Shown one piece after another: positions 9,428 to 48,600 of a stretch of 64,000 nt of DNA. The notes beneath the pieces were generated by a model. It saw only the letters and a list, made by a program, of their open reading frames with translations, was not told the origin of the DNA and searched no databases. The DNA comes from Chloroflexota bacterium (GTDB taxonomy: Bacteria > Chloroflexota > Dormibacteria > Dormibacterales > Dormibacteraceae). Each line of letters begins with the position of its first letter. Position 1 is the stretch's first letter. The position numbers and the translations under genes were made by a program. The stretch covers positions 1 through 64,000 of the forward strand of contig VBDR01000024.1 of NCBI GenBank assembly GCA_005882135.1, written 5' to 3'.

Positions 9428-9434
9428 TACGATA
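9428..9434. promoter_or_regulatory. Symmetric TANNNTA divergent -10 core (small Cys protein / ligase)
   Basis: TACGATA gives TACGAT on the plus strand, 8 nt before the ligase GTG at 9442, and TATCGT on the minus strand, 8 nt before the ATG at 9420. Neither gene has a Shine-Dalgarno sequence in that space. Confidence 0.55.
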
Positions 9435-9441
9435 GGCCTCC

Positions 9442-11097
9442 GTGCTTGATTTCGCCCGAGCAGGAGCCGCGGTCGGCGCGACGCCGGCCACGCTGGAGAA
9501 GACGCGGATCCTCGGCGCGTATTTCCGCAGGCTGGGCGAGGACGACCTCAGGCGGGCGGCGGTCTACATGAGCGGGCGCGCGTTTCCACCTTCCAGGCGG
9601 CGGACGCTTGGCCTTGGCTGGTCGACGCTGAGCAAGGTCGTCTCGTCCGTTTCGCGCCGCGACGAGGCTGAGCTCGGGCAAATCTTCCGCAAGCACTCTG
9701 ACCTCGGCGACTGGGCCGGCGAGGCGCTCGATGGACGCACCCAACCCGAAGTGGTCACCCTCCAGGAAGTCGAGGTCACGCTCGACGCGATCAGGACCGC
9801 GCGCGGCACGGCCAAGGCGGCGCCGCTGGAGTCGATGCTCCGGCGCCTGGATCCGGAGGCGGCGCGGTTCTTCATCAAGATCATCTCGGGCGAGATGCGC
9901 ATCGGATTGAGTGAGGGCCTGGTCGAGGCGGCGATCGCCGAAGCGTTCGGGGCGCCGATCACGCAGGTCAAACGGGTTCACCTGGTGACTGGCGACATCG
10001 GTGAGACCGCTGTGCGATGCAAGCGCGGAGAGTTCGAGGCCAGCACGATCACGCTGTTCCAGCCCGTGCGCTTCATGCTCGCGAGCCCGGTCGAGACGCC
10101 AGGCGAGGCCTTCGAGCGCATGGCTGCGGGCACGGTCTGGACGGAGGAGAAATACGACGGGGTGCGCTGTCAGCTGCATCGCCAGGCGTCTCGGGTGGAG
10201 CTGTTCTCGCGCGACCTCAAAGAGACGACCGGCGCATTTCCCGAGCTCACCGAGGCTGCGCCCTCGATCGGTCACGACGTGCTCTTCGACGGCGAGGTCC
10301 TTGCGCACCGCGATGGCCGCGTGCTCCGGTTCTTTGAGCTGCAGCGGCGGCTAGGGCGCAAGCAGGTCGACGCCGTCTTGCGGCGCGATGTGCCGGTGGT
10401 GCTCGTCATCTTCGACGTGCTGTGGCTCGACGGCCGCACCCTGCTCGACGAGCCGCTCACGACACGGCGCAAGCTGCTAGAAGGTCTCGGCCTCGAGCAT
10501 CCGTTTCTGCTGGCGCGGCTCGAGGAGGCGACCGACCCGCAGCACCTCGACCGCATCTTTGCCGAGACGCGAGAACGTGGCAATGAGGGGTTGATGGTCA
10601 AGGATCCAATCAGTCCGTACACGCCAGGACGGCGCGGCCTGGCATGGCTGAAGCTGAAGCGGCCTCTCGCGACACTCGACGTCGTCGTGACTGCGGTCGA
10701 GTGGGGCCACGGCAAGCGGAAGGGCGTGCTGTCCGATTACACGTTTGCGGTCAAGGACACGCGGACGGGCCGGCTCGTCAACGTCGGCAAGGCGTACACC
10801 GGGCTGACTGATGCTGAAATCGCGACTTTCACTGAGCGCTTTCTGGCGATGACGGTCGAGGACATGGGCCATGTGCGGATGGTGCGGCCGGAGGTGGTGC
10901 TCGAAGTCGCGTTCGACTCCATCCAGCACTCGGGGCGGCACCTGAGCGGTTTCGCGCTTCGCTTTCCGCGCATCGTGCGCATCCGCGACGACAAGCCGGT
11001 GGATGAGATCGACACGCTCGAGCGTGTGGCCGGGCTCTACGACCGGTATTTCGGTGAGAAATCAGAGGTGCCATTGTCCGAGGTCGCGGAGACTTGA
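9442..11097 (+). CDS. lig: ATP-dependent DNA ligase
   Basis: Joins DNA nicks using ATP. The 551 residues have the three-domain archaeal-LigB-like layout: N-terminal DNA-binding domain (about 1-200), adenylation domain with motif I EEKYDGVR and the nucleotidyl Lys237, motif III FDGEVLA, motif IV-like NEGLMVKD and motif V LAWLKLKR, then a C-terminal OB fold (GRLVNVGKAYTGLTD, VLEVAFDSIQHS). It is an accessory ligase, distinct from the NAD-dependent LigA expected elsewhere. The MBL-fold exonuclease nearby is a typical partner. The GTG start is probably leaderless. Confidence 0.93.
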   Translation: MLDFARAGAAVGATPATLEKTRILGAYFRRLGEDDLRRAAVYMSGRAFPPSRRRTLGLGWSTLSKVVSSVSRRDEAELGQIFRKHSDLGDWAGEALDGRTQPEVVTLQEVEVTLDAIRTARGTAKAAPLESMLRRLDPEAARFFIKIISGEMRIGLSEGLVEAAIAEAFGAPITQVKRVHLVTGDIGETAVRCKRGEFEASTITLFQPVRFMLASPVETPGEAFERMAAGTVWTEEKYDGVRCQLHRQASRVELFSRDLKETTGAFPELTEAAPSIGHDVLFDGEVLAHRDGRVLRFFELQRRLGRKQVDAVLRRDVPVVLVIFDVLWLDGRTLLDEPLTTRRKLLEGLGLEHPFLLARLEEATDPQHLDRIFAETRERGNEGLMVKDPISPYTPGRRGLAWLKLKRPLATLDVVVTAVEWGHGKRKGVLSDYTFAVKDTRTGRLVNVGKAYTGLTDAEIATFTERFLAMTVEDMGHVRMVRPEVVLEVAFDSIQHSGRHLSGFALRFPRIVRIRDDKPVDEIDTLERVAGLYDRYFGEKSEVPLSEVAET

Positions 11098-11109
11098 CTC
11101 TTCCCACCC

Positions 11110-11147
11110 GGCGGCTGCGCCGCCGACCTCCCCACATGGTGGGGAGG
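11110..11147. repeat. Tandem perfect hairpins in the ligase/MBL gap
   Basis: Two perfect inverted repeats sit back to back: 6-bp arms at 11110-11115 and 11119-11124 with a 3-nt loop, then 9-bp arms at 11127-11135 and 11139-11147 with a 3-nt ATG loop. There is no T-run, so this is not a classical terminator. The right arm of the second hairpin contains GGGGAGG, which could serve as the ribosome site of the next gene. It may be a short palindromic repeat or an RNA control element. Confidence 0.55.
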
Positions 11148-11161
11148 TGAATTAGCTTCTC

Positions 11162-11899
11162 GTGCGTCTCACTTTCATGGGGACGGCTGGGGCTCGCTTC
11201 ATGGTTGCCAGGCAGGTTGCCGCGTCCGGTGGTCTTTTCATCGAGGACGGGAACACTCGGATCAGCCTTGATCCGGGTCCTGGCGCGGTGGTGCAGTACG
11301 CGCAGCGAAAGATCGACCTCACGACACTCGACGCGATCGTGGTCAGCCACCGGCACCTCGACCACGTCGGCGACGTGAACGTGATGATCGAAGCCATGAC
11401 CGACGGCGGTTTCTCGCACCGAGGGCGGCTCTTCTGTCCCTCCGACGCGCTCGATGAGGACCCGGTCGTGCTCAAGTACCTGCGCCGGTTCCCGCAGGAG
11501 ATCGTCCGCCTTGCACCCGAAACCTCCTACTCGGTCAATGGGCTGACGTTCACAACCAGCGGCCGCCACGTGCACCAGGTCGAGACGTACGGTTTTCGTT
11601 TCGGCCACCGGCTCGGTTGGATCACCGACTCCGCTTACTACGAGGGCATCGCCGAGCAGCACCAAGCCGATGTGATGCTGATCCACACCATCCTGATGCA
11701 CTGCAGGCCGGATCTTCCGCACCTCTGCATTGACGACGCGGAGCGCATCATCCGCGAGGCGAAACCGCGGCTCGCCATCCTGACGCACTATGGGATGGCG
11801 GTCTGGCAAGCGAACCCGCAGGAGATCGCCGCCGACCTTACGCATCGGATCGGGACCGAGGTCCAGGCTGCGCGAGACGGGATGTCGCTAGAGCTGTGA
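11162..11899 (+). CDS. MBL-fold metal-dependent hydrolase
   Basis: A 245-residue metallo-beta-lactamase-fold protein related to the RNase Z/PhnP-like branch (Lactamase_B_2). The metal site reads SHRHLDHVGD (His63, His65, Asp67, His68), then SGRHVHQ, WITDSAYY with the bridging Asp, and ILTHYGM. There is no beta-CASP domain and no flexible arm as in tRNase Z. The GTG start follows the G-rich arm of the hairpin at 11139-11147. The substrate is unknown: small phosphodiester or RNA processing are possibilities. Confidence 0.83.
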   Translation: MRLTFMGTAGARFMVARQVAASGGLFIEDGNTRISLDPGPGAVVQYAQRKIDLTTLDAIVVSHRHLDHVGDVNVMIEAMTDGGFSHRGRLFCPSDALDEDPVVLKYLRRFPQEIVRLAPETSYSVNGLTFTTSGRHVHQVETYGFRFGHRLGWITDSAYYEGIAEQHQADVMLIHTILMHCRPDLPHLCIDDAERIIREAKPRLAILTHYGMAVWQANPQEIAADLTHRIGTEVQAARDGMSLEL

Positions 11900-11914
11900 A
11901 CACCCCGCTTTGAC

Positions 11915-13634: not shown

Positions 13635-13662
13635 TCTGGATGGCAGCTTACGAGAAACATTC

Positions 13663-13781: not shown

Positions 13782-13787
13782 CCCCTA

Positions 13788-14865: not shown

Positions 14866-14875
14866 ACCCGCGCCA

Positions 14876-14902: not shown

Positions 14903-14917
14903 CTGCACCCAAGGCGA

Positions 14918-15937: not shown

Positions 15938-15949
15938 GACGGCATCTTA

Positions 15950-21889: not shown

Positions 21890-23129
21890 GCTTACTCCCC
21901 CTTTGTTCCACGCCAGCGCGGAAAAGCCGATTCTCCCACAGGGCCAGGACGAAGATTCCGATCCCCGCGATCGTCCACAGGTTCGGGAAGAACAGCTCGC
22001 ATGGCTGACGTACGAACCCCAACAGAAAGACGCCCATGAGGACCAGCGTGATCCAACGGCGTCGTTCGATCCCGCGCACGATGACGATCAGCGCAAGCGG
22101 GAGCAGCGGCAGCCACTGGTAGGGCCAGACCTCATTGGGAACGAGCGCGCCGAGGGCGAAGCCGAGTGACATTCCGTACGCGGCATTCCAGCCGCTGCGC
22201 CAGGCCGCCCACGCCGCGCCCACCGCGAACGCCACCGCGCTGGCGTAAGAAATGAACAGCGCGGCAGCCGAGAAGTGGAGCGGGGAGCTCACGATCTCGT
22301 ATCCGGTTGCCGACGGGACGGCAAACGGCTCGCCACCGATGGTGCGCATGAACAGCGTGCGCACCGAGTCGTACGCGCAGTCCGGGTTGTAGGAGCCGAG
22401 TGACGGCACCAGGACGTGCTGGTAGTAGAAGAGGGCGCCGCCGAGGCCCAGCGGGATGAACGTGGCCGCGGTCACGAGCGCCGCCACCACACCCAGCACG
22501 ATCGCGTATCGGATCCGATGCCCAGGCCGCGGCCCGATGATCATCGCGGCGGGGTAGTACTTGATCGCCGCCGCCAGGCCGCCGACCGCGCCCGCAAGGG
22601 CCGGCCGCTTGCGCTCGAACCAGATCGAGGCCATGGCCAGCCCGAGCATCACGCCGCCACGCTGGCCCGCGCTCACGTCCGCAAAGAGGGGCGGGAAGTA
22701 CGCCGCGGCGACCCAGAAGATGGGGCGAGCCAGCCGGTTTTGCGTTGCGAGCACGCGATCAAGCAGGATCAAGGCCAGGAGAAGGGCGGCCGCATCGATC
22801 GCGGTCCAAACCTGGACCCCGACGCTCCTGGGCAGGAGGGCGACCGGGATCGCGAGCACCGCAACCGGCGGCGGGCTGACGAACGCGTCGAGCCCACCCG
22901 GTGGCGCGATGATGTGCAGCCGCGACAGGTAATTTGCAGCAGCGTCGTACATGTGCGGCGGATTCACCAGGTAAGCGCGTGCGCCCTCCCACATGCCTTC
23001 GGCGTCATAGCGGCGCGGCGTGGCAAGGGTCAGGAAAATCCCCCGCAGGGCGAAAACGATCGCGAGCACCCAGTAAAAAGCCGGCCGCGACAGCACGTCG
23101 GCGGCGGCGCGCTGCAGGCGGTGGATCAA
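21873..23129 (-). CDS. GT87 (DUF2029) polytopic glycosyltransferase
   Basis: Integral membrane protein with about ten hydrophobic segments. I choose the TTG at 23129 (MIHRLQRAAADV, 418 residues) because it overlaps the LysR stop as TTGA; a frame open upstream to 23324 lies wholly inside the LysR gene and has no membrane character. Family 87 features are RRYDAEGMWEGARAYL and HMYDAAANYL in the first external loop, DAFVSPPPVAVL, and the central SAGQRGGVMLGL. It resembles polyprenyl-phosphate-mannose-dependent mannosyltransferases. The acceptor is unknown. It is the second such gene in the window. Confidence 0.8.
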   Translation of the reverse strand: MIHRLQRAAADVLSRPAFYWVLAIVFALRGIFLTLATPRRYDAEGMWEGARAYLVNPPHMYDAAANYLSRLHIIAPPGGLDAFVSPPPVAVLAIPVALLPRSVGVQVWTAIDAAALLLALILLDRVLATQNRLARPIFWVAAAYFPPLFADVSAGQRGGVMLGLAMASIWFERKRPALAGAVGGLAAAIKYYPAAMIIGPRPGHRIRYAIVLGVVAALVTAATFIPLGLGGALFYYQHVLVPSLGSYNPDCAYDSVRTLFMRTIGGEPFAVPSATGYEIVSSPLHFSAAALFISYASAVAFAVGAAWAAWRSGWNAAYGMSLGFALGALVPNEVWPYQWLPLLPLALIVIVRGIERRRWITLVLMGVFLLGFVRQPCELFFPNLWTIAGIGIFVLALWENRLFRAGVEQRGSKHGAQC

Positions 23130-24094
23130 TCCGTCGGAGGGCGGACGCGACCGCGCGAGCCGTTGCGCGAGACCCAGCTCGTGTCTTTGAGGAACTCGAT
23201 GAACGCGTGCACCGACGCAGGCAGCTTCCGCCTGCGCAGGTGGACGATGTGCCAGTCGCGGCGGATCGGAAAGCCCTGGACGTCCAGCTCGACCAGGCGG
23301 CCGGTCGAGAATTCGAGCGCGCACGCATAGCGAGATATCACCGCAAGGCCAAGCCCCGATTCGACCGCGTGCTTGATGGCGCCATTGGACCCGAGCTCCA
23401 TCGCGACCATCAGCTTGACGCCCGCCCTGCGCGCGGCCTTTTCCAGCGACCAGCGGCTTCCAGAGGCAGCCTCGCGCATGACGAAAGGCTGGTCCGACAC
23501 GTCTTTGAGGCTGAGACCGCGCCTATCCGCCAGCACATGCCCGGCGGGCGCGATCACGACCAGCTCATCGGTGAGAAACGGGATGATCGCGAGCTCCGGG
23601 TCTTTCGAGGCCGGACCAACCACCGCGAGGTCGAGCTCGTTGTTGAGGACCTGCTCCTGCACGCGGGCGCGGGTTCCGATCTCGAGCGAGATGACGAGTC
23701 CGGGGTGCAACTTCTTGAAGGCGCCGAGAGCCGCGGGCAGCAGGTAGATGCCGACCGTCGTGCTGGCCCCGACGCGCAGGCTGCCGCGCTTGATGCCGCG
23801 CATCTCCTCGATCGCAACCGTCGCGTCGTCGAGCACGTCGAGCATCCGGCGCGCGTAGCCGTAGAGGAGCGATCCCGCCTCCGTCAGCTGCACGCGCTTG
23901 CCCAAGCGGTCCAGCAGCGGCAGTCCGAGCGTCTCTTCCAGCTCTTTCACCTGGTACGAGACCGACGGCTGGCTGAGCTTGAGGCGCTGTGCGGCGAGGC
24001 TGAAGCTGTTCAAGTCGGCGACCGTCTTGAACGTGCGGAGCTGCCGCAAAGTGACCGCCCTGTCCAGGTCGAGCTGAGATTGAGCTTGCGGCAC
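23126..24094 (-). CDS. LysR-family transcriptional regulator
   Basis: A 322-residue regulator from the GTG at 24094. The N-terminal helix-turn-helix (LRQLRTFKTVADLNSFSLAA, then KLSQPSVSYQVKELEETLG) is followed by a periplasmic-binding-protein-like effector domain (RVGASTTVGIYLLPAAL, ELDLAVVGP). The start is supported by TATCGT 7 nt upstream; a TTG at 24049 is an alternative. It diverges from the acyl-CoA carboxylase gene through a shared 19-bp gap, the usual arrangement when a LysR protein controls its neighbour. It is also translationally coupled to the GT87 gene. Confidence 0.88.
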   Translation of the reverse strand: MPQAQSQLDLDRAVTLRQLRTFKTVADLNSFSLAAQRLKLSQPSVSYQVKELEETLGLPLLDRLGKRVQLTEAGSLLYGYARRMLDVLDDATVAIEEMRGIKRGSLRVGASTTVGIYLLPAALGAFKKLHPGLVISLEIGTRARVQEQVLNNELDLAVVGPASKDPELAIIPFLTDELVVIAPAGHVLADRRGLSLKDVSDQPFVMREAASGSRWSLEKAARRAGVKLMVAMELGSNGAIKHAVESGLGLAVISRYACALEFSTGRLVELDVQGFPIRRDWHIVHLRRRKLPASVHAFIEFLKDTSWVSRNGSRGRVRPPTD

Positions 24095-24100: not shown

Positions 24101-24107
24101 TACGATA
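24101..24107. promoter_or_regulatory. Symmetric TANNNTA divergent -10 core (LysR / carboxylase)
   Basis: TACGATA reads TACGAT on the plus strand, 7 nt before the ATG at 24114, and TATCGT on the minus strand, 7 nt before the GTG at 24094. The 19-bp gap has no room for two separate promoters or for ribosome sites, so both mRNAs are probably leaderless. Confidence 0.58.
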
Positions 24108-24113: not shown

Positions 24114-25751
24114 ATGGCGGCGAGGAAACCCAGGTCTCTTTCACCAGTGCGCCGAACCACTCCGAGCCTCGAAGGCGTCGAGGCTCCGCAGCGAGAGGCG
24201 ACCACCGTTTCGGAACAGAAGATCAACCAGTACCGCAAGCGCCGCTACCAGGCTCTGCACACCGACACCGACGCCGCGAACAAGCGTCGGGCGGCGGGCA
24301 AAGCGACCGCCCGCGATCGCATCGAGATGCTGCTCGACGAGGGCTCGTTCGTCGAGCTCGACGTCTTTGCGACGCATCGCGCGCACGGCTTCGGGATGGA
24401 GGACCGCAAGATCGCCGGCGACGGCGTGGTCGCAGGGTTCGGCGAGATCGACCGCCGGCCCATCGCCGTCTACGCGTACGACGCCACGGTCTTCGGCGGC
24501 TCGCTCGGAGAGGTGACCGCGGAAAAGATCGTCAAGGTCCAGGAGCTCGCGCTCCGCAACCGCGTGCCCATCATCGGCATCAACGACTCGGGCGGGGCCC
24601 GTATCCAGGAAGGCGTGGTCGCGCTGGCCGGTTACGCGGACATCTTCTTTCGCAACGTGCGGTCCTCGGGCGTCATCCCGCAGCTCAGCGTCATCGCCGG
24701 GCCATGCACGGGCGGGGCGGTCTACTCGCCGGCCATCACTGACTTCATCTTCATCGTCGCCGGCCAGGGCTACATGTTCATCACCGGCCCGGAGGTGATC
24801 AAAGTCGTCACCGGCGAGGCGGTGTCGTTCGATGAGCTCGGCGGCGGCCACGTCCACAACGCGACGTCCGGCGTCGCCCACTTCCTGCCTCAGACGGAGC
24901 AGGACTGCGCCGCGGGCGTGCGCAAGCTGCTGTCGTACCTGCCGTCATCGAACGCGGAGCGACCGCCGTTCGTGCCGACCACCGACGACGTCGAGCGAGC
25001 CGACGTCGAGCTGCAAACCATCGTGCCGGAGCTGCCGAACAAGCCGTATGACATGCGAGAGGTCGTCTCCCGTGTCCTCGACGGGCGCGAGTTCTTCGAG
25101 GTGCAGCCCTTCTTCGCCCAGAACATCGTGGTCGGCCTCGGCCGGCTCGGTGGCCACGTCGTCGGTATCGTCGGCAACCAGCCCAAGGTGCTCGCGGGCG
25201 CGATCGACATCAACGCCTCGGTCAAGGCGGCCCGGTTCATCCGCTTCTGCGATGCCTTCGGCATTCCGATCATCTCCTTCGTGGACGTGCCCGGCTACCT
25301 GCCAGGGCGCGACCAGGAGCACGGCGGGATCATCCGGCACGGCGCCAAGCTGCTGTACGCCTACGCGGAAGCGACGGTGCCGAAGCTCGCCGTGATCACG
25401 CGCAAGAACTACGGCGGCGCGTACACCGTGATGTCGCCGAAGCAGATGGGCGCCGACCTCAACCTGGCCTGGCCGACGGCAGAGATCGCGGTGATGGGCC
25501 CGCAGGCGGCGGTCAACATCATCTACAAGCGGGATCTGGCCACGGCGCGCGACCCCGTGGCGCGACGCAAGGAGCTCGTCGCCGAGTACACGGCGCGCTT
25601 TGCCAATCCGTACGTGGCGGCGGAGCGCGGGTACATCGACGATGTCATCGAGCCGAGCCAGACGCGTCGCGAGCTGGTGCGCGCCCTTCAGCTGTGCCTG
25701 CGCAAAACCGTCGAGCGCCCGCCGCGCAAGCACGGGAACATCCCGCTTTAA
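24114..25751 (+). CDS. Acyl-CoA carboxylase carboxyltransferase (beta) subunit
   Basis: Transfers a carboxyl group from carboxybiotin to acetyl- or propionyl-CoA, feeding fatty-acid synthesis or propionate metabolism. The 545 residues have two crotonase-like halves: N-terminal with KATARDRIEMLLDEGSFVELD, GINDSGGARIQEG and GPCTGGAVYSPA; C-terminal with FCDAFGIPIISFVDVPGYLPG, KNYGGAYTVM and RDLATARDP. The substrate (acetyl or propionyl) cannot be fixed by eye. The biotin carboxylase and carrier subunit are not in the window; biotin ligase is at 42.4 kb. Copy B of the dispersed repeat follows the stop at once. Confidence 0.92.
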   Translation: MAARKPRSLSPVRRTTPSLEGVEAPQREATTVSEQKINQYRKRRYQALHTDTDAANKRRAAGKATARDRIEMLLDEGSFVELDVFATHRAHGFGMEDRKIAGDGVVAGFGEIDRRPIAVYAYDATVFGGSLGEVTAEKIVKVQELALRNRVPIIGINDSGGARIQEGVVALAGYADIFFRNVRSSGVIPQLSVIAGPCTGGAVYSPAITDFIFIVAGQGYMFITGPEVIKVVTGEAVSFDELGGGHVHNATSGVAHFLPQTEQDCAAGVRKLLSYLPSSNAERPPFVPTTDDVERADVELQTIVPELPNKPYDMREVVSRVLDGREFFEVQPFFAQNIVVGLGRLGGHVVGIVGNQPKVLAGAIDINASVKAARFIRFCDAFGIPIISFVDVPGYLPGRDQEHGGIIRHGAKLLYAYAEATVPKLAVITRKNYGGAYTVMSPKQMGADLNLAWPTAEIAVMGPQAAVNIIYKRDLATARDPVARRKELVAEYTARFANPYVAAERGYIDDVIEPSQTRRELVRALQLCLRKTVERPPRKHGNIPL

Positions 25752-29524: not shown

Positions 29525-29552
29525 CGCAGTGGTCGGATTCTACGGCCGACCA

Positions 29553-29559
29553 TAAGCTA
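29553..29559. promoter_or_regulatory. Symmetric TANNNTA divergent -10 core (ADH / SDR)
   Basis: TAAGCTA gives TAAGCT 6 nt before the SDR GTG at 29565. The minus-strand TAGCTT lies 29 nt from the dehydrogenase ATG at 29524; TAGAAT (29542-29537) is a closer alternative for that gene. Confidence 0.5.
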
Positions 29560-40590: not shown

Positions 40591-41186
40591 ACCGCGCGGC
40601 TGAGACGTGCCAGGTCGGAAGGCTCGTCGAGGTCGAGCGCCAACGGGTCCGAATGATGGACCGCGAAACGCACGCCTTTTGCCTCAGCCTCCGCACGGAA
40701 CCTGGCCAGTGAGTCGTCGCCGAAATGCATGGCGATCGCGCCGGGCGGGCGCAGGTAGAGGGCGTTGGTCCCGCCGCGGCCGATGGCAGGCACGGCGATG
40801 GCGATCGGGGGCTTGAGCCTCGCCGCCGAGTCGAGCAGCTTGCGAACCGCGGCCTCGGTCACGAGGGGCAGGTCGCTGGACAGCAGGAGCACCGCGCCGG
40901 CGCCCGCCTCCACGGCTCGTTTCAGGCCGCGCTCGGCGGCGATGTTCTGGCCTTCTTCGCGTGGTTCGAGCAGAACATCGGCGCCCCACGACGCCGCTAT
41001 CTCCGACACCTCCTCGCCGCCCGCGACGACGAGCACGTGGTCGCCCGCGGCGGCGGCACGCACCGCAAGCTGAGCGTTCCTCCGAGCGAGTGCGCGGCGA
41101 GACTTGATCCCCATCGCGGGGCGCAGGCGTTGCTTGGCCGAGTCGAAGTCCTTGACCAGGACGACGACCCAGGTTGTTACTGCCAC
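40587..41186 (-). CDS. cofC: 2-phospho-L-lactate (or PEP) guanylyltransferase
   Basis: Activates 2-phospholactate or phosphoenolpyruvate with GTP for F420 synthesis. The 199 residues have the nucleotidyltransferase fold: [36 protein letters not shown] and [25 protein letters not shown] (two adjacent blocks). CofC uses phospholactate in archaea while actinobacterial FbiD uses PEP; sequence does not settle which applies. It overlaps fgd by 10 nt and cofE by 4 nt. Confidence 0.9.
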
Positions 41187-42184
41187 TGCTTGCGAATCCT
41201 CGGCAGGATCTGCGATCCATAGAGCTCGATGAAACGCGTCTGGCCGTCACCCGGCGCATGAAAGACCAGGTGCGTGAAACCAAGCTCCAGGTATGGCCTC
41301 AGCTGTTCGATGTGCTCGTCGGGGTCGCTGGCGACGAGCCAACGGCGGTCGGCCACGTCCTCCACCGTCTTGGCGAGCCGTTCCATCTCTCGCGGGTCGT
41401 CGATGCCGGACTTGGCTTCGGCCGGCAACGCCAGCGCGGCCCAGATCTTGGTGTCCTCCCGGGCCCGGTTGCCATCCGTATCGAACGAAACCTTGACCTC
41501 GATCATCCTGTCGAGATCACGGGCCGCCCTGCCGGATTCTTGCGCGCCATCGCTGAACGACGGGAGCAACTGCTGGGAGTACAGCTCCATTCCCTTGCCG
41601 GAGGTGCAGATCAGCCCGTCGCCCGCCCGCCCTGCGTATTTCGCCACCTGTGGGCCACCGGCCCCGATGTAGACCGGCACCGGCTTTTCCGGACGGTCGT
41701 AGATGGTCGCGTTTCGCGTGTGGTAGTAGTCGCCGTCAAAGGTCACGGACTGATCGGTCCACAGCATGCGGATCAGCCGCACCGCTTCCCGCAGGCGGGC
41801 GAAACGCTCGCGGTTGTCGGGCCACTCGATGCCGAGCGCACCTTCGTTGAGGTGCTCGCCCGTGCCCACGCCAAGGATCATTCGCTCGGGGTAGAGCGAG
41901 CCGAGCGTTCCGAACGCCTGGGCGACGATCGCGGGGTGATAGCGAAAAGTGGGCGTTACGACCGATGTCCCAAGCAGGATTCGCTTCGTACGCTCGCCGG
42001 CCGCGGCCAGCCATGCGAACGCAAATGGCGCGTGGCCGTCGGAGTGGCGCCAGGGCTGAAAGTGATCGCTGACGAAAACCGAGTCGAAGCCGTTCGCCTC
42101 CGCGGCTACCGCAAAGTCGAGCAGCTCACGGGGTCCGAACTGCTCGGCCGAGGCTTTGTAACCAAGTTGCAGCTTGGGCCCCAA
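41177..42184 (-). CDS. fgd: F420-dependent glucose-6-phosphate dehydrogenase-like LLM oxidoreductase
   Basis: TIM-barrel flavin-like oxidoreductase of the luciferase-like family, reducing F420 with a sugar phosphate. It resembles mycobacterial Fgd1 along its length ([67 protein letters not shown]). The residues that hold F420 and the phosphate of glucose 6-phosphate in Fgd1 are conserved: His/Trp of SDHFQPW, Glu of GTGE, Lys of TSGKG, Lys of PAEAKSG and Arg of DRRWLVAS. The start is TTG, abutting the stop of the small membrane protein. Confidence 0.93.
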
Positions 42185-42373
42185 TCAGTTGCGCCTGCCG
42201 TAGCGCTTCCAGCTAAAGGCGGCACCGCTGATCGCGGCCGCGACGATCACCACCACAAGCGCGATCAGGCTGTGGCTGTCGAAGTTGGCGATGCCCGCCG
42301 CGGTTAGCAGCACGAGAGCGCCCACCGCCACCAGCATCATCACGAGAAGGACGACCGCGCGGTGGATCTTCAT
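42185..42373 (-). CDS. Small two-helix membrane protein at the head of the F420 operon
   Basis: A 62-residue protein. Its ATG at 42373 shares the CATG with an ATG on the other strand. Two membrane helices (AVVLLVMMLVAVGALVLLTAA and LIALVVVIVAAAISGAAFSW) are joined by a short polar turn, and the C-terminus is basic (KRYGRRN). Its TGA is immediately followed by the TTG of fgd. Function unknown; it could anchor or localise the operon's enzymes. Confidence 0.68.
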   Translation of the reverse strand: MKIHRAVVLLVMMLVAVGALVLLTAAGIANFDSHSLIALVVVIVAAAISGAAFSWKRYGRRN

Positions 42374-42382
42374 GGACTCGGT

Positions 42383-42389
42383 TAGCTTA
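42383..42389. promoter_or_regulatory. Symmetric TANNNTA divergent -10 core (F420 operon / birA)
   Basis: TAGCTTA gives TAGCTT on the plus strand, 7 nt before the birA GTG at 42396, and TAAGCT on the minus strand, 10 nt before the ATG at 42373. The whole gap is 22 bp. Confidence 0.55.
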
Positions 42390-42395
42390 CCGACC

Positions 42396-43007
42396 GTGGG
42401 TAAATCACAAGTCGTGCGCCTGGACTCGGTGACGTCGACGCAAGACGCCGCGCGCGACATGGCGATCGGCTCGATCGTGATCGCAAACCACCAGACGGCA
42501 GGTCGAGGTCGCCTCGAGCGGCGCTGGGAGGCGCCACCCGGAACGGCTCTGCTGGCGTCCTTCGTGCTGCACCCGAATCCGCTCCTCAGCCTTGCCGCGG
42601 GCGTCGCCGCGGCCGAGGCCTGCGGTGAGGCCGTCCGTCTGAAATGGCCGAACGACCTCCTGCTGGCGGGCCTGAAGCTTGGTGGCGTTCTGGTCGAGGC
42701 AAAGCAAGGCAAGGCGATCTGTGGCATCGGTATCAACCTGACGTGGGCGCCAGTGGGCGCCGCGAAGTTGGACCTGCCGGCCGACGAGCTTCTCGACCGA
42801 TTGCGGGAAAGGATTGAAGTGTGGACCGCGGCCCCGCCCGACACCGTGCTCGACCGCTGGCGCCGGCTGTCTGCAACCCTTGGACGGCGGGTGCGACTCG
42901 AGCTTTCGGGCAAGACCACCGAGGGTCTTGCTGAGGACGTCGGGCCCAATGGCGAGCTGATCGTGGACGGAGTGCCGTTCTTCGCCGGTAGCGTCACCCA
43001 CTTATGA
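42396..43007 (+). CDS. birA: Biotin--[acetyl-CoA-carboxylase] ligase
   Basis: Attaches biotin to carboxylase carrier proteins via biotinyl-AMP. The 203 residues from the GTG at 42396 carry DSVTSTQDAARD, ANHQTAGRGRLERRW (the biotinyl-AMP loop), KWPNDLLLAGLKLGGVLVE and GIGINLTW. The N-terminal DNA-binding domain of E. coli BirA is missing, so it is a ligase without repressor activity. An ATG at 42372 would add eight residues; the 7-nt spacing from TAGCTT supports the GTG. Its partner substrates would include the acyl-CoA carboxylase system at 24 kb. Confidence 0.9.
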   Translation: MGKSQVVRLDSVTSTQDAARDMAIGSIVIANHQTAGRGRLERRWEAPPGTALLASFVLHPNPLLSLAAGVAAAEACGEAVRLKWPNDLLLAGLKLGGVLVEAKQGKAICGIGINLTWAPVGAAKLDLPADELLDRLRERIEVWTAAPPDTVLDRWRRLSATLGRRVRLELSGKTTEGLAEDVGPNGELIVDGVPFFAGSVTHL

Positions 43008-43737
43008 GTCGGCCGATCTCGGGGAGCACCTCGCCCGAGCGGCCATGAATGACGACCTCGGCGAAGCGGTCGAACGGCGTCGGTTCGGCGTTGACCACGA
43101 TCATCAGGGCGCCTGACTGCACCGCCAGCAGCGGAACTTCCGCGGCCGGGTAGACGACCAGCGATGACCCGACCACGAGCATCACGTCTGTTTGGCGTGC
43201 CAGCTCGAACGCCTCATTGAGGGCGGCCGCCGGCATCGGCTCGCCGAACAGGACCACGGTCGGCTTCAAAAAGATGCTTCCGCAGCTGCGGCAGTGCGGC
43301 GGCATCTCAGTGTCCAGTCTGCGCTGAACGTCCGCCCTCGCCTCGCGACTGCCGCACTCGAGGCACTGCACCATCCGCCCCGAACCATGCAGCTCGATCA
43401 CGTGCGTGCTTCCCGAGTCCTGATGGAGGCCATCGGTGTTCTGGGTCACGATCGCGGCCAGGCGCCCCGCGGCCTCCATGGCCGCCAGCGCCTCGTGTCC
43501 CGGATTGGGGCGGGCGGCCAGGGCGATCGAACCGCGCTCTTTCGAGACCCGCCAATAGGCGGCGGGGTCGGCGAGGAAGCTTTCGATCGAGGATACCTTC
43601 ACCGGGTCGTACTTGGTCCACAGGCCACCCTCGCCCCGGAAGGTCGGAATCCCGCTTTCGGCCGAGACGCCGGCACCGGTCAGGGCGAGGCCTTGGCGCG
43701 CGGTCGCCAGGAGCTCCGCGGCGCGTCTGACTGTCAA
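42994..43737 (-). CDS. cobB: Sir2-family NAD-dependent protein deacylase
   Basis: Removes acyl groups from lysine using NAD+, for example to reactivate acetyl-CoA synthetase. The 247 residues contain TGAGVSAESGIPTFRG, QNTDGLHQDSGS, the catalytic His in ELHGSG, a zinc site of two C-x2-C pairs (CLEC, CRSC) and GSSLVVYPAAE. It lacks the Tyr/Arg pair typical of class III desuccinylases in the usual place, so it is probably a deacetylase. It overlaps the upstream cyclase gene as ATGA. Confidence 0.9.
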   Translation of the reverse strand: MTVRRAAELLATARQGLALTGAGVSAESGIPTFRGEGGLWTKYDPVKVSSIESFLADPAAYWRVSKERGSIALAARPNPGHEALAAMEAAGRLAAIVTQNTDGLHQDSGSTHVIELHGSGRMVQCLECGSREARADVQRRLDTEMPPHCRSCGSIFLKPTVVLFGEPMPAAALNEAFELARQTDVMLVVGSSLVVYPAAEVPLLAVQSGALMIVVNAEPTPFDRFAEVVIHGRSGEVLPEIGRLISG

Positions 43738-45683
43738 ATGAACAATGACTGCCTGGCGTACAGCTGCTGGCTTGCGCTGTACGCACTGGCGGCCGCGTCG
43801 GTCGGCATCGGCACCCAGGGCGAACCCGGTTCTTCGCGGATCGCGGTCACCTTGAAGATGCGGAATTTTTCCGCGCTCTTGCCTTTGAGCTGAATGCCGG
43901 GGACCTCATCGATCGCGATGTAGTCGGAGCATGCCTGGTAGGTCGCCAGCCCGATCAAAACCTCAAACGCGGGAGCCGCGCTGCAGAAGCGGGCGCCTGT
44001 GTTCACGGTGTCGCCGAGCGCGGTGTACTGGAGGCGGTCCTGGCTGCCCATGTTGCCGACGACCGCCGGCCCGGTGTTGACGCCGATGCCCCAACCGATG
44101 GGCGGCAGTCCGCGCGTGGCGAGCTTGGCCTGCAGCGCTGGGGCATTGCTGACCAGGTCGTATGCGCAGCGAATCGCGAGCAGCGCATGGTTCGCCTGTT
44201 CGAGTGGGACGTTCCAGAGCGCCATGATCTCGTCGCCGACATACTTGTCGATAAGGCCATCCCACTTGAGGATGAGCTTGCTCATCTCATCAAGGTAGTC
44301 CTGGATTACAGCGAGAACGTCATCCGCACGCATCGATTCGGACATCGATGTGAAGCCCCTTATGTCCATGAACAGCACGGTGAGGTCGCGGCGCTCGCCT
44401 TTCGAGATCAGATCTTCAACCGAGCGCGTCGCAGCAAGCTGACGAGCGACACGCGGGTCGATGTAGTGGCCGAAGATGCGCTCGACCTTGCGGCGCTCGC
44501 GTTCCTCGAGCACATAGCGCGCGCCAAGCGAGAAGGTCGCGGCCAGGACGATGGCGGTCGGCGCGTATAGGGGATCGGCCAGGTAACCGTTCTGACCGAT
44601 CAGATAGATGCCAAGGTAGTACGCCAAGAGGAGGCTCGCGGTGAGGAGCATCCCCACGCGAAACGAAAGCAGGTAGACGATGAGGCCGACGATCGCGGCC
44701 AGCAGCAGCACGGCGAGCTGGGTCGACACTGGCGGCTGAGTGCGGAGGTATCGATCCCGCAGCACCGTGCCTATGGCGTCGCCCTCGATTCGGTAGCCGT
44801 AGTTCTGGCTGTCCAGCATGCAGCGCGGCCGGTGGACTGGACAGAAGCTGGCATCGTGGGGGAAGGAAACGGCCTGGCCGTAGATGTCACCGGCATCGAT
44901 CAGCTTGGTGCCGACCACGACGATGTGATCAGTGATGAGATCGGGTTGCGGGCACGCACTGTTGAAGGCGTCGACGTAAGAGCAGCTCGGACTCGATCCG
45001 CGGGAGAAATTGATCAGCATCTGACCCTGCTCGACCGGAATCCGGTGAGTCCCAAATGTGGCAACAGAGTCGCGCACCGTGAGGGGTGCGGTGATCTTCT
45101 CGGAGATTCGTAATGCCAGCAAAAAGGCGGGCTCGTCGGTCTCGTTCTCGGCGCAGGTCGCGTCCGGGGCCGGCCTCAGGATCAAGCCACGGACTGCGTT
45201 GGCACGATCCGCAACCCCGAGTCCGCGATCACCAACCGCGGCGGCGACGGTTGAAAACTCTGGCCGCGGAGCCGATTCGGCGTTGCATACGAGAACTACA
45301 TTTCCCGCTGCCCGGATCGCCTGCGTCAACTGCGGGTCGGTCGCCTCGAAGGGCGGTTCCACGCTGTTGCCAGTCAGGTGGTCCAGCACGATGTCAAAGA
45401 GGATCGCCTTCGGGTGAAGGCCGGCCAGGTAGTTGATCACCTGCGCGTGATAGGAGTTGTTCCAGGGATAGGCACCGAGGGTCCGCTGGCTTCGTGAATC
45501 CAGCGCCACGAATGTGATCTGGGGATCCGGTGAAGGCGCGGGGAACAGCGTGTCCTGGCCCGCATCGAATGTCCCGGCTGTGACGCCGGTTTGAGCAAGA
45601 GTGATCACAAGCAGGCCGGCCACAATTCCCGCGAGAGCGAAGCGCCAGGCCAGGCGCCAGTCGCCAACTCTCTCGCGGACCAT
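43734..45683 (-). CDS. CHASE2-domain class III adenylate cyclase (second copy)
   Basis: A 649-residue receptor cyclase paralogous to the one at 31.3 kb. After the first membrane helix comes a CHASE2 sensor (about 45-330; ITFVALDSRSQRTLGAYPW), three membrane helices and a C-terminal class III domain (about 430-600). Metal Asp (FMDIRGFT, YVGDEIM), the Lys of IDKYVGDE, Asp of ALGDTVN and the Asn/Arg of NTGAR are conserved, so it should make cAMP. The sensor regions of the two copies are much less alike than the catalytic domains. It is translationally coupled to the sirtuin. Confidence 0.9.
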   Translation of the reverse strand: MVRERVGDWRLAWRFALAGIVAGLLVITLAQTGVTAGTFDAGQDTLFPAPSPDPQITFVALDSRSQRTLGAYPWNNSYHAQVINYLAGLHPKAILFDIVLDHLTGNSVEPPFEATDPQLTQAIRAAGNVVLVCNAESAPRPEFSTVAAAVGDRGLGVADRANAVRGLILRPAPDATCAENETDEPAFLLALRISEKITAPLTVRDSVATFGTHRIPVEQGQMLINFSRGSSPSCSYVDAFNSACPQPDLITDHIVVVGTKLIDAGDIYGQAVSFPHDASFCPVHRPRCMLDSQNYGYRIEGDAIGTVLRDRYLRTQPPVSTQLAVLLLAAIVGLIVYLLSFRVGMLLTASLLLAYYLGIYLIGQNGYLADPLYAPTAIVLAATFSLGARYVLEERERRKVERIFGHYIDPRVARQLAATRSVEDLISKGERRDLTVLFMDIRGFTSMSESMRADDVLAVIQDYLDEMSKLILKWDGLIDKYVGDEIMALWNVPLEQANHALLAIRCAYDLVSNAPALQAKLATRGLPPIGWGIGVNTGPAVVGNMGSQDRLQYTALGDTVNTGARFCSAAPAFEVLIGLATYQACSDYIAIDEVPGIQLKGKSAEKFRIFKVTAIREEPGSPWVPMPTDAAASAYSASQQLYARQSLFI

Positions 45684-45691
45684 GTCGCCGG

Positions 45692-45698
45692 TATGTTA
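45692..45698. promoter_or_regulatory. Symmetric TANNNTA divergent -10 core (cyclase / MFS)
   Basis: TATGTTA gives TATGTT on the plus strand, 7 nt before a GTG at 45705, and TAACAT on the minus strand, 9 nt before the cyclase ATG at 45683. Confidence 0.55.
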
Positions 45699-45704
45699 GG
45701 CAGG

Positions 45705-46913
45705 GTGACCCAGGCCGTCCCCGAATCTCGCCGCATGCTCTTTCTGTACGTGGCCGCCGGAGCGGTATTCGCCACCATCGCGGCCCGTGGCGTGACCGTG
45801 CCCCTGTACGCGCACGACCTCGGCGCAAGTCGATTCGAGGTCGGCGCGCTCTTCTCGGTGGCGACGATTGCCGCGGCGCTGCTCTCGCTTCCCTCTGGCG
45901 TGCTGGTCGATCGTTTCGGTGCCCGAACCCTGCTCGGCCTGTCGCTCGGCGCCACCGCCCTCTCGCAGATCGCCACGGCATTCACGGTGAGCGTGGCTCC
46001 CCTGTTCCTGTGGCAGATCGTGGGCGGGCTCGCCGCCGGCGCGCAGCAGTCCGCGATCTTCAGCGCCGTCACCGAGTCGGTGTCGAGAGGGCGGCTGGGC
46101 CGCGCGATGGGCTGGCTGACGCTTTCAATGCAGGTCGGCTTCACGCTCGGCCCCGCCATCGCCGGTCTCGCGCTGAAGTGGATCGACCTGCGCACCGACA
46201 TCGGGGTCACGACCGTGCTGTTGATCTTCACCATTCCGGGCGCGCTCGCAGTGAGCCAGACGCGGCAGCACACAGGACAGGGGCTCGCGCTGCGGGAACC
46301 GCTGAAAGCCCTGGCCCGCCAGGTCGCTTTCGTGCCGGTGACGATCGGCCTGGTCAGCATGACCCTGATCTGGGGCACCTTCGGCGCCTTCGTCCCCATC
46401 TTCGCCAGGGAGGCGCTCGGCCTGCCTAGTTTTCAGGTCGGCCTGCTGCTCGGGTTGCAGGCGATCTTCAACGCTGGTTCGCGGCCCGTGGCCGGACGGA
46501 TCGTGGATCGGGCCCGGCGCCGATGGCCGATCGTGCTGGTCGGTGTGATCGTGTGGTCCGCGGCGATGGTGGTGGTCGGTCACCTCACCGGCTTCTTGCT
46601 GCCGGCGATCGTGATCGCCATCGGCACGCCTTTCATAGCGGCGGCTTTCGTTGCCATCGGCGTCGTCTTCGGTGACCTGTCGAGCGCGTCCACGCGCGGG
46701 GTGACGATGGGCATTTACGGCACCGTGCTCTTCCTTGGCCTTTCCGCCGGACCGCTGATCTTCGGGCCGATCGTCCAGGGTTATGGCTACGCGGCGGGGT
46801 TCACCGTCTGCGCCGTGGTCGCGGTGGTGTTGGTGCTGGTGATGGCGGCGATGCAGGTGGAGCCGGCGCGGCGGCGGTCAGAGGTGCCGGTCCCGCCAAC
46901 GCCTGGGACCTGA
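45705..46913 (+). CDS. MFS transporter
   Basis: A 402-residue, 12-helix major facilitator. GVLVDRFGARTLLG between helices 2 and 3 is the family loop motif, and a matching VAGRIVDRARRRWPI appears in the second half. The GTG at 45705 is chosen because TATGTT lies 7 nt upstream; an ATG at 45693 would add four residues. The substrate is unknown; drug or metabolite efflux is common for this type. Its last 113 nt overlap the C-terminal region of the convergent NUDIX gene. Confidence 0.87.
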   Translation: MTQAVPESRRMLFLYVAAGAVFATIAARGVTVPLYAHDLGASRFEVGALFSVATIAAALLSLPSGVLVDRFGARTLLGLSLGATALSQIATAFTVSVAPLFLWQIVGGLAAGAQQSAIFSAVTESVSRGRLGRAMGWLTLSMQVGFTLGPAIAGLALKWIDLRTDIGVTTVLLIFTIPGALAVSQTRQHTGQGLALREPLKALARQVAFVPVTIGLVSMTLIWGTFGAFVPIFAREALGLPSFQVGLLLGLQAIFNAGSRPVAGRIVDRARRRWPIVLVGVIVWSAAMVVVGHLTGFLLPAIVIAIGTPFIAAAFVAIGVVFGDLSSASTRGVTMGIYGTVLFLGLSAGPLIFGPIVQGYGYAAGFTVCAVVAVVLVLVMAAMQVEPARRRSEVPVPPTPGT

Positions 46914-47391
46914 GGTAACCGTCCAGCACCGCCCGGTGGCTTGGAAACGCGATCGGCGGTAGGTCGTCCGGCGCGAAGGTGCCCAGCTCGAGCATCTCCG
47001 GTCCGGCGCTCATGACGGCGCCGCCGGCGAGCCGGCCGCGGTAGGCGATCCCGACGATGCTTGAAGCCGTGGTCTTGCCTATGTGATAGATGCCGATCAG
47101 CCCAGTGAGCTCGACCACCGCGTTGATCTCTTCCATGCACTCCCGGACGGCGGCCTGCGCGGGGTCTTCATCGTCGTTCACGAAGCCACCGGGCAGGCAC
47201 CAGAGGCCGTAGCCGGGCTCGATGCTGCGGCGGCCGAGCACGATTCCACCATCGGCTTCGACGACGACGGCGGCCGCGACCTTGGGATCGCGCCACAGCA
47301 CGTAACCGTCGTTCGGACACACCTCGAGCTCGCGGTTCTCGATCAGCTTCACGATGAGCGGCCCGCCGCAGTTGACGCAGAAGTGCCCCAC
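46801..47391 (-). CDS. NUDIX hydrolase with N-terminal zinc ribbon
   Basis: A 196-residue NUDIX protein. The zinc ribbon CVNCGGPL and the later VCPNDGY precede the fold, and the NUDIX box GGFVNDDEDPAQAAVRECMEEI follows near residues 68-91 (shown without its ends). This ribbon-NUDIX layout occurs in NADH pyrophosphatase-like and ADP-ribose pyrophosphatase-like enzymes. The C-terminal 35 or so residues are Ala/Pro-rich low complexity and lie antisense to the MFS gene, so they may be an annotation artefact of a late stop. Confidence 0.83.
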   Translation of the reverse strand: MGHFCVNCGGPLIVKLIENRELEVCPNDGYVLWRDPKVAAAVVVEADGGIVLGRRSIEPGYGLWCLPGGFVNDDEDPAQAAVRECMEEINAVVELTGLIGIYHIGKTTASSIVGIAYRGRLAGGAVMSAGPEMLELGTFAPDDLPPIAFPSHRAVLDGYLRSQALAGPAPLTAAAPAPPASPPSPAPTPPRPRRRR

Positions 47392-47401
47392 GTTGGGGAG
47401 A

Positions 47402-48559
47402 TTAGACGGGTTCGGCCTCCGGCTTCGTGGGATGCGGCTTGGGCGCCGGGCCCTTCATGTCGGCGACGCGAACCTGGTTCCGCCCGCCTTGTTTGGCCGT
47501 GTACAGGGCCTGGTCGGCGCGGTCGATGAGCTGCGTGAACAGCGTGGGCTCACCGGTCGCGGCCACACCGATGCTGATGGTGAGCTTGAGGCCACCGGGA
47601 AACGTCGCCGCGGCGACTTTGGCGCGAATGCGCTCGGCGAGAGTTCGAGCGCCGGGCTCGGTGGTTTCGTGGAGGATGAGCGCGAATTCTTCGCCTCCGT
47701 AGCGGGCGCAGACGTCGGATTCGCGCGCACCCGTTTTCAGGATTTGGGCGAGCTCTGCAAGCACCGCGTCGCCGTTCAGGTGCCCGTACGTGTCGTTGAC
47801 CTGCTTGAAGTGGTCCAGGTCGATCATCAAGAAAGCGATCGCGTTGTGGTGGCGGCGCGCCCGCTGCATCTCCTTCAGGAACTCCTGGGCAAGCGCGCGC
47901 CGGTTGGGCAGCTTGGTGAGCTCGTCGGTGAGGGCGTTCTCCTCCTGGGCTTGAAACAGCTGCGCATGGCGGATGGCGATCGCGGCCTGCGAAGCGACTC
48001 CGTTGAGGAGGTCGGCCTGGTCCTCCGTCAGCTCGCGCCAGGCATTGAGGTAGAGCTCCATCGCGCCCATGAGCTGTCCTGATCGCACGATCGGCACGAC
48101 CAGCGCGTGCTGCGGGTGTCCGCCTGCCTCCAGTCCTGGCGCCGTGCGCTCATCGAGGTTGACCACGAGCGGCCGCATCACTGAAAGCACGGTTTGCAGC
48201 GGCTCCTCGTCGATCTTTCGCACACCGCCGCGAGCCCGGTTGGTCAGGTTGTAGGAGGCTTCGCGGTACATCTCGGCCTTCCCAATCCGAACCAGGTACA
48301 TGGCACCGGCGACCGCGCCCATGATCCGGCCGGCGTGGGTCAGAGCGACGTTGAGCACCTCTTCCAGCGCCAGCGACGAGTTGACCGCGGATGCGATGGC
48401 GAGCAGCAGAGCGGCCCGGTCACGCGCGCCGCTCTCGTCGGCCAGCGCGGCCTCGAGCTCTTGGGCGGTGCCGCGCAGACGCATCAAGGAGACGGTGAGG
48501 AGGATGAAAGCAATGACAAGGAGAACCGAAGTGACGAGTAGAACGCCGGCGAGCTCCAC
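47402..48559 (-). CDS. Membrane GAF-GGDEF diguanylate cyclase
   Basis: A 385-residue protein making cyclic di-GMP. I start at the GTG at 48559, which has a perfect AGGAGG 7 nt upstream. One membrane helix (LLVTSVLLVIAFILLTVSLM), a GAF sensor (about 45-200) and a GGDEF domain (about 215-370). The active-site motif is GGEEF, and RESD five residues before it is an intact product-inhibition I-site. So it should be active and feedback-controlled. Confidence 0.9.
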   Translation of the reverse strand: MELAGVLLVTSVLLVIAFILLTVSLMRLRGTAQELEAALADESGARDRAALLLAIASAVNSSLALEEVLNVALTHAGRIMGAVAGAMYLVRIGKAEMYREASYNLTNRARGGVRKIDEEPLQTVLSVMRPLVVNLDERTAPGLEAGGHPQHALVVPIVRSGQLMGAMELYLNAWRELTEDQADLLNGVASQAAIAIRHAQLFQAQEENALTDELTKLPNRRALAQEFLKEMQRARRHHNAIAFLMIDLDHFKQVNDTYGHLNGDAVLAELAQILKTGARESDVCARYGGEEFALILHETTEPGARTLAERIRAKVAAATFPGGLKLTISIGVAATGEPTLFTQLIDRADQALYTAKQGGRNQVRVADMKGPAPKPHPTKPEAEPV

Positions 48560-48593
48560 CGAGGGACCTCCTGGTTCGGATCGAGAGTTGCCA

Positions 48594-48600
48594 TAGGTTA
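48594..48600. promoter_or_regulatory. Symmetric TANNNTA divergent -10 core (GGDEF / MaoC-like)
   Basis: TAGGTTA gives TAGGTT 12 nt before the TTG at 48612 and TAACCT on the minus strand, 35 nt before the GTG at 48559. The latter gene has a ribosome site, so its mRNA would be leadered. Confidence 0.48.

What the first reader, a model, noticed from the sequence alone, without database searches (positions are those of the whole stretch)
9428..48600. Recurring symmetric TANNNTA cores between divergent genes: bidirectional promoters for leaderless mRNAs
Six divergent gene pairs contain a TANNNTA heptamer that reads TANNNT on both strands: 9428 (TACGATA), 24101 (TACGATA), 29553 (TAAGCTA), 42383 (TAGCTTA), 45692 (TATGTTA) and 48594 (TAGGTTA). 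Distance from the hexamer to the start codon is 8/8, 7/7, 6 plus 29, 7/10, 7/9 and 12 plus 35 nt (plus/minus strand). With A and T at about one sixth each, the heptamer is expected about once per 1300 bp; all divergent gaps together total under 1 kb. Known: symmetric -10 sites can fire both ways, and TANNNT 6-7 nt before a start codon marks leaderless genes. Inference: this lineage uses one shared core for both genes, with coordinated expression of pairs such as F420/biotin ligase and LysR/carboxylase.
Basis: partly seen in the sequence, partly recalled or inferred. Interest (0 to 1): 0.72.

Follow-up and report, generated by a model that had tools for sequence, protein, structure and literature searches.

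The report
Shared leaderless promoters for divergent genes
In this uncultured soil bacterium some back-to-back gene pairs appear to start from one tiny symmetric DNA switch that could launch RNA in both directions, with almost nothing between the switch and either protein start; the switch type is known, and only this stripped-down two-way use looks new.

Summary
All six TANNNTA sites and spacings are as stated; the window holds only 7, against about 52 expected from base composition. In 1.27 Mb of this genome (Ca. Dormibacterota) TANNNT stands 6-10 nt before many starts (outside the window 81 of 296 divergent genes; 11 of 322 expected with it) and is purged about fourfold from coding DNA. In 327 divergent pairs of five genomes, two such -10 hexamers overlap in two registers only, TANNNTA (14) and ANNNTANNNT (8); shuffles of 324 pairs give 1.6 and 0.6. 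These equal the 18- and 23-bp spacings published for bidirectional promoters. At four of the six loci the heptamer stands in 57 of 58 orthologous sequences. Two of six fail: 29553 has a separate minus -10, 48594 is no convincing divergent pair. Shared cores serve 11 of 161 own divergent pairs, so this is no general rule. TANNNTA is not in excess of the dinucleotide expectation in divergent gaps outside the window, and strict start calls lose the divergent/tandem contrast. No RNA data; coordination untested. Verdict: real; new variant of a known promoter type.

The parts
9428..9434 (.). Shared symmetric -10 core TACGATA between a 70-aa minus ORF (ATG at 9420) and a DNA ligase gene (GTG 9442); spacers 8/8
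   Evidence: heptamer and minus ATG at spacer 8 in 16 of 16 same-genus sequences, plus start in frame at spacer 8-10 in 12 of 16
9208..9420 (-). 70-aa ORF, no Pfam match
9442..11097 (+). ATP-dependent DNA ligase
24101..24107 (.). Shared symmetric -10 core TACGATA; minus GTG at 24094 (LysR), plus ATG at 24114 (carboxyltransferase); spacers 7/7
   Evidence: heptamer in 12 of 12 orthologous sequences (TACCATA in G022)
23126..24094 (-). LysR-type regulator
   Evidence: present beside the core in 9 of 9 same-genus loci, not in L053 or G022
24114..25751 (+). Acyl-CoA carboxylase carboxyltransferase
42383..42389 (.). Shared symmetric -10 core TAGCTTA; minus ATG at 42373 (62-aa ORF), plus GTG at 42396 (biotin ligase); spacers 10/7
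   Evidence: 14 of 15 sequences, AAGCTTA in G014
42185..42373 (-). 62-aa ORF without Pfam match, followed directly by a luciferase-like monooxygenase gene (41177-42184)
42396..43007 (+). Biotin/lipoate protein ligase
45692..45698 (.). Shared symmetric -10 core TATGTTA; minus ATG at 45683 (CHASE2-nucleotide cyclase), plus GTG at 45705 (MFS transporter); spacers 9/7
   Evidence: 15 of 15 sequences, inner bases TATGTTA/TATGGTA/TATCGTA/TATCTTA
43734..45683 (-). CHASE2 - adenylate/guanylate cyclase
45705..46913 (+). MFS transporter
29553..29559 (+). TAAGCTA: leaderless-type -10 of the plus gene (GTG 29565, spacer 6) only; not a two-sided shared core
29537..29542 (-). Separate -10 (TAGAAT read on minus) 12 nt before the minus ATG at 29524
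   Evidence: offset -16
48594..48600 (-). TAGGTTA inside a block kept in 11 of 11 genomes examined; probable promoter part of the minus GAF-GGDEF gene, not a divergent leaderless pair
63188..63194 (+). Seventh TANNNTA of the window, 6 nt before GTG 63200 (acyl-CoA dehydrogenase), tandem context

Best explanation
At 9428, 24101, 42383 and 45692 a single 7-bp symmetric -10 element (TANNNTA) is the core promoter of both divergent genes. RNA polymerase with its main sigma factor can bind it in either orientation: the -11A and -7T of one strand pair with the -7T and -11A of the other, so the two transcription starts lie about 18 bp apart. Because each start codon lies 7-10 nt beyond the hexamer, both mRNAs begin at or within about 4 nt of the start codon and are read as leaderless. 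No -35 element is generally needed. The same arrangement, with a second register (ANNNTANNNT, about 23 bp), serves about 7% of divergent pairs in this genome. Shown: sequence geometry, positional signal, purge elsewhere, cross-species conservation. Inferred: sigma binding, RNA 5' ends, activity in both directions, leaderless translation.
For: TANNNT at spacer 6-10 of motif-blind start calls, own genome with window: 89 of 322 divergent genes (11.0 expected), 49 of 428 tandem with gap >=25 (8.8), 49 of 430 tandem with gap <25 (4.6); outside the window 81 of 296 divergent and 89 of 815 tandem. Coding TANNNT observed/expected 0.27 and 0.24 on the two strands, TANNNTA 0.09, against synonymous shuffles; other spacings 0.48-0.93. 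Head-to-head offsets in 327 pairs: +1 in 14, -4 in 8; shuffle means 1.55 and 0.6 for 324 pairs. Between -10 and +10 the only other offset is one +9. Offsets +1, -4 and +9 equal start distances of 18, 23 and 10 bp, the three named in the Introduction of PMC12825309. Core in 57 of 58 orthologous sequences at four loci. The symmetric A is scarce after TANNNT in tandem genes (15 of 280; 0.107 expected, p=0.0026) and commoner in divergent ones (29 of 247; p=0.011). Upstream of 329 aligned cores no position carries more than 0.1 bit; TTGAC occurs 10 times at 14-21 nt.
Against: No transcript data. With only the top-scoring start per gene the divergent/tandem difference vanishes (17 of 144 against 13 of 164, p=0.34). 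In divergent genes as a whole A after TANNNT does not exceed background (29 of 247 against 0.151, p=0.15). TANNNTA is not enriched over the dinucleotide content of divergent gaps outside the window (23 against 20.3). Start calls are computed, and some of the 22 cases rest on second-choice starts. At 9428 the plus start is in frame at spacer 8-10 without a stop in 12 of 16 sequences only. In L053 and G022 the 24101 heptamer is kept but no LysR gene lies beside it. TAN6T is also reduced in coding DNA (0.48-0.51), which the -10 reading does not explain. Of the overlapping registers, offsets 0, -3, -5 and +5 are impossible by their letters and the two seen are the ones that need fewest letters; the shuffles allow for this.
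Confidence: 0.75

Rival explanations
1. The core drives one gene only; the second half-site is a by-product of short gaps and a weakly specific -10 word, and the other gene is transcribed from elsewhere or read through.
For: P(A after T) is already 0.11-0.15 upstream of genes, so a chance second half-site is cheap. 29553 is a TANNNTA whose minus gene has its own -10. In L053 and G022 the 24101 core is present without its LysR partner.
Against: Both half-sites stand in 57 of 58 sequences over four loci; the cores of 24101 and 45692 are also met in G022, another genus. Positional excess 14 against 1.55.
Confidence: 0.17
2. The heptamers are operator sites of transcription factors (for example LysR) rather than -10 elements.
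For: 24101 lies beside a lysR gene; short palindromes are typical of operators (recalled).
Against: Inner bases differ between loci and within 45692; gene pairs are unrelated, including class I (E/Q) tRNA synthetase, fumarase and DNA ligase genes; the distance to starts is narrow.
Confidence: 0.04
3. Chance words in AT-richer gaps, picked out because the reader scanned for symmetry.
For: The window is an outlier (4 of 7 own-genome cases in 5% of the sample); no overall excess over dinucleotide content in divergent gaps.
Against: 10 of the 14 TANNNTA pairs and all 8 of the other register lie outside the window; shuffles give 1.55 and 0.6; conservation.
Confidence: 0.04

Closest known systems
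Bidirectional promoters with a shared symmetric -10 element (Warman, Grainger and colleagues; PMC10268837 passages, PMC12825309 Introduction and passages; their 2021 paper PMC7612053 is not held)
   Same: -7T and -11A pair reciprocally; 18 bp preferred, 23 and 10 bp also common; on the chromosome mostly between divergent genes
   Different: 'leaderless' does not occur in the main text of either paper. Here both start codons sit at the presumed transcript starts, so promoter and both gene starts fit in 18-30 bp, and no -35 signal is seen
Leaderless TANNNT genes of Actinobacteria and Deinococcus-Thermus (PMC3160421 passages; PMC12340547 one section and passages)
   Same: TANNNT about 6-7 nt before the start, high-GC genome, little information in the three middle bases
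   Different: Here spacers run 6-10; lineage is Dormibacterota. Two-sided use: 0 hits for divergent, bidirectional, opposite, palindrom in the main text of PMC12340547; 0 for divergent in the main text of PMC3160421 (the listing shows 1, which may be in its references)
Selection against spurious -10 motifs (PMC1939733, abstract and passages)
   Same: -10 motifs under-represented in coding regions of 24 of 42 genomes there
   Different: Here the spaced three-letter word is reduced about fourfold on both strands; methods differ, so sizes cannot be compared directly

Membership tests
Bidirectional (shared -10) promoter | -10 element symmetric so that -7T and -11A coincide reciprocally | tested here: met
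   TANNNTA at four window loci and in 14 pairs overall
Bidirectional (shared -10) promoter | Preferred spacing of the two transcription starts 18 bp, also 23 and 10 | tested here: inconclusive
   Predicted from hexamer positions only: offsets +1, -4, +9; real starts not mapped
Bidirectional (shared -10) promoter | RNA made in both directions from the site | not testable with these tools
   no transcript data held
Leaderless TANNNT gene | TANNNT about 6-7 nt before the start codon, in excess over other positions | tested here: met
   peak at spacers 6-10; at 6-7 in the Nonomuraea control
Leaderless TANNNT gene | RNA 5' end at the start codon | not testable with these tools
   no transcript data held
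Leaderless TANNNT gene | No room for a ribosome-binding site in the transcript | tested here: inconclusive
   7-10 nt between hexamer and start at the four loci; follows only if transcription starts where predicted
ECF-type promoter (48594; consensus recalled, from no call) | GGAAC-like -35, about 16 nt, CGTT -10 | tested here: inconclusive
   pattern G[GA]A[AC]C-N15-18-CGTTA found in 7 of 10 relatives, not in the window itself

The most novel reading that the evidence does not exclude
In family f1 of Dormibacterota about the smallest possible promoter, one 7- or 10-bp symmetric -10 word, is a selected device that makes two leaderless mRNAs whose start codons are 18-30 bp apart. Because the polymerase can face only one way at a time, paired genes such as LysR/carboxylase are coupled by competition at a single site with no 5' leader, no -35 and almost no other regulatory room.
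Probability: 0.35. Interest if true: 0.66.

Novelty: new variant of a known kind. Interest (0 to 1): 0.52.

Why it matters
If true, it joins two separately known facts, symmetric two-way promoters and leaderless genes, into about the most compact divergent expression unit that they allow, in an uncultured phylum. The sequence rule (both starts 18-30 bp apart around TANNNTA or ANNNTANNNT) predicts transcription starts and start codons from sequence alone, so one 5'-end data set can test it. The fourfold purge of TANNNT from coding DNA suggests that a bare -10 is enough to start transcription here.

Tried and rejected
Considered and rejected: a genome-wide rule that divergent genes share a core (11 of 161 own pairs); 48594 and 29553 as shared cores; one transcription-factor operator (inner bases vary). 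Tested and not found: enrichment of TANNNTA in divergent gaps over dinucleotide content outside the window; a divergent/tandem difference with strict starts. Controls for shared cores: Nonomuraea 300 kb 0 of 43 divergent pairs, Deinococcus plasmids 0 of 18, class-level relatives G027 and G037 0 of 49, E. coli 50 kb 0 of 4. Against 21 of 278 pairs in the three f1 samples the first two together give p=0.019 and the relatives p=0.054, so a restriction to f1 is suggestive only. Avoidance of TANNNT as a marker of leaderless lineages is weakened by Deinococcus, only 0.65 (Nonomuraea 0.38). No structure prediction, RNA-family or tandem-repeat search was made. Literature: eight searches were answered; of each I saw a capped listing with abstract starts (5-20 papers), and in those rows no paper on two-sided leaderless bidirectional promoters; the library lacks most subscription journals.
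Full report
Setting. The window is part of a 2.71-Mb, 91-contig genome, 85% complete.

Observation. All six heptamers and spacings are correct. There are 7 TANNNTA in 64 kb; base composition predicts 52. The seventh also precedes a start (63188, GTG at 63200). Of 115 TANNNT on both strands of the window, 19 lie 5-12 nt before a called start of the right strand.

Gene calls. I wrote a gene caller that uses codon scores, start-codon type and overlap only, no promoter or ribosome-site signal, and applied it to 1.27 Mb of the own genome (window included), 0.4 Mb each of G004 (same genus) and G022 (same family), and 0.2 Mb each of G027 and G037 (same class).

TANNNT as a leaderless -10. Spacers between TANNNT and the called start peak at 6-10 nt: own genome 89 of 322 divergent genes (11.0 expected from spacers 15-40), 49 of 428 and 49 of 430 tandem genes (8.8 and 4.6 expected). 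Divergent genes elsewhere: G004 20 of 120 (3.1), G022 30 of 114 (3.3), G027 15 of 76 (1.9), G037 2 of 22 (0.2). Weak cases: G004 tandem with gap >=25, 6 of 116 (2.5), and G027 tandem with gap <25, 1 of 54 (0.0). Outside the window the own genome has 81 of 296 divergent and 89 of 815 tandem genes; the window 8 of 26 and 9 of 43. GTG starts sit mainly at 6-7 nt (108 of 157), ATG starts spread over 6-10 (58 of 158 at 6-7). Upstream of 329 aligned cores no position carries more than 0.1 bit; TTGAC occurs 10 times at 14-21 nt. Controls at spacer 6-10: Nonomuraea 12 of 251 genes (3.8 expected), peak at 6-7; Deinococcus plasmids 10 of 111 (3.8); E. coli 0 of 37 (2.0).

Purge from coding DNA. Against synonymous-codon shuffles, TANNNT in 601 coding sequences of the first 0.68 Mb (window included) is at 0.27 (+) and 0.24 (-), TANNNTA at 0.09 (10 observed, 109 expected). 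TAN1T, TAN2T, TAN4T and TAN5T lie at 0.77-0.93, TAN0T at 0.61-0.67 and TAN6T at 0.48-0.51, the last unexplained. Over 34 chosen loci of many phyla and the five samples the ratio is 0.20-0.33 in G027, G004, G000 and G022, 0.18-0.34 in six actinobacterial loci, 0.18-0.47 in six loci of MAGs labelled Chloroflexi CF_n, 0.30 in a locus of palsa_842 (G022 again), 0.47 in G037, 0.85 in E. coli and 0.52-1.09 in the other 20; most loci are only 10-20 kb. Nonomuraea has 0.38 and Deinococcus plasmids 0.65, so the purge does not simply follow leaderless use.

Shared cores. For each divergent pair I listed TANNNT at spacers 5-12 from plausible starts on each side (scores within 8 nats of the best) and recorded the offset of the two hexamers. 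In 327 pairs of five genomes offset +1 (TANNNTA) occurs 14 times and -4 (ANNNTANNNT) 8 times; one own pair has both, giving 21 distinct pairs (own 11, G004 3, G022 7; G027 and G037 0). Between -10 and +10 the only other value is one +9, at a pair that also has -4. Dinucleotide shuffles of 324 of the gaps give 1.55 (highest 4) and 0.6 (highest 2) in 20 runs. Five of the 21 are orthologous to another one (one of them judged on one side only), leaving 16 loci. First bases of the two start codons are 18-25 bp apart for TANNNTA and 22-30 for the other register. If transcription starts 7 bases after the -7T, offsets +1, -4 and +9 mean 18, 23 and 10 bp, the three distances reported as common for bidirectional promoters (PMC12825309, Introduction; PMC10268837, passages, for 18 bp).

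Conservation. 24101: 12 sequences (ten of the 41 matched genomes and two named records). 9428: 16 same-genus sequences (22 of 25 genomes matched); five class-level loci were looked at and left out, two of them with a TAAGCTA nearby. 45692: 15 same-genus sequences (24 of 25 genomes matched; weak and class-level matches left out). 42383: 15 (25 of 25 matched; G002 and nine class-level genomes not fetched). TANNNTA is present in 12, 16, 15 and 14: 57 of 58. At 45692 the inner bases take four forms while the outer TA pairs are fixed; at 24101 one sequence differs inside; at 9428 and 42383 the three inner bases do not vary while flanks do. At 9428 the minus ATG stands at spacer 8 in 16 of 16, the plus start in frame at 8-10 in 12 of 16. 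At 24101 a LysR gene lies beside the core in 9 of 9 same-genus relatives but not in L053 or G022. 29553: TAAGCTA in 4 of 7 (own plus six). 48594: TAGGTTA in 11 of 11 (own plus ten), within a longer conserved block.

Tests that weaken the claim. A after TANNNT outside the window is 29 of 247 in divergent and 15 of 280 in tandem genes (p=0.011), but 17 of 144 and 13 of 164 with strict starts (p=0.34). Background A-after-T upstream is 0.151 (divergent) and 0.107 (tandem), so the signal is a shortage in tandem genes (p=0.0026) rather than an excess in divergent ones (p=0.15). TANNNTA per kb is 4.4 times higher in divergent than convergent gaps outside the window but about equals the dinucleotide expectation there.

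Functions. Window pairs: 70-aa ORF/DNA ligase; LysR/carboxyltransferase; 62-aa ORF followed by a luciferase-like monooxygenase, facing biotin ligase; CHASE2 cyclase/MFS. Other own pairs: fumarase/Ppx-GppA, peptidase S51/class I (E,Q) tRNA synthetase, beta-eliminating lyase/amidohydrolase, cyclase-TPR/cNMP-binding, GT87/GNAT, polysaccharide deacetylase/glycosyltransferase, ferredoxin/protein without match in the part scanned.

Conclusion. It combines two known things in a compact form that I did not see in the listings of eight searches of an open-access library. The missing proof is RNA.

Noticed in passing
48560-48640: Conserved block around TAGGTTAACGC in 11 of 11 genomes; on the minus strand 7 of 10 relatives match G[GA]A[AC]C-N15-18-CGTTA (ECF-like, recalled) before a GAF-GGDEF gene, the window itself does not.
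   Followed up: partly
48612-49466: Plus-strand ORF with a MaoC-like match below the Pfam cut-off whose coding signal is positive for about 540 nt and then negative: perhaps a decayed or frame-shifted gene.
   Followed up: partly
G000, G004, G022, G027 coding sequences: TANNNT is reduced three- to fivefold in coding DNA, both strands together, as in six actinobacterial loci and unlike E. coli or three Anaerolineae-type loci.
   Followed up: partly
9428 gap, relatives G002, G007, G013: The start next to the core is out of frame with the ligase (G002, G007) or meets a stop first (G013): a short leader peptide or a leadered start there.
   Followed up: partly
24101 ortholog in L053 and G022: Heptamer and minus GTG are kept although no LysR gene lies beside them.
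   Followed up: partly
leaderless-type genes, five genomes: GTG starts cluster at spacer 6-7, ATG starts spread to 9-10: perhaps 5'-GUG is used exactly at +1 while AUG tolerates a few leader bases.
   Followed up: no
coding sequences, own genome: TAN6T is reduced to about half of expectation on both strands, with no explanation.
   Followed up: no
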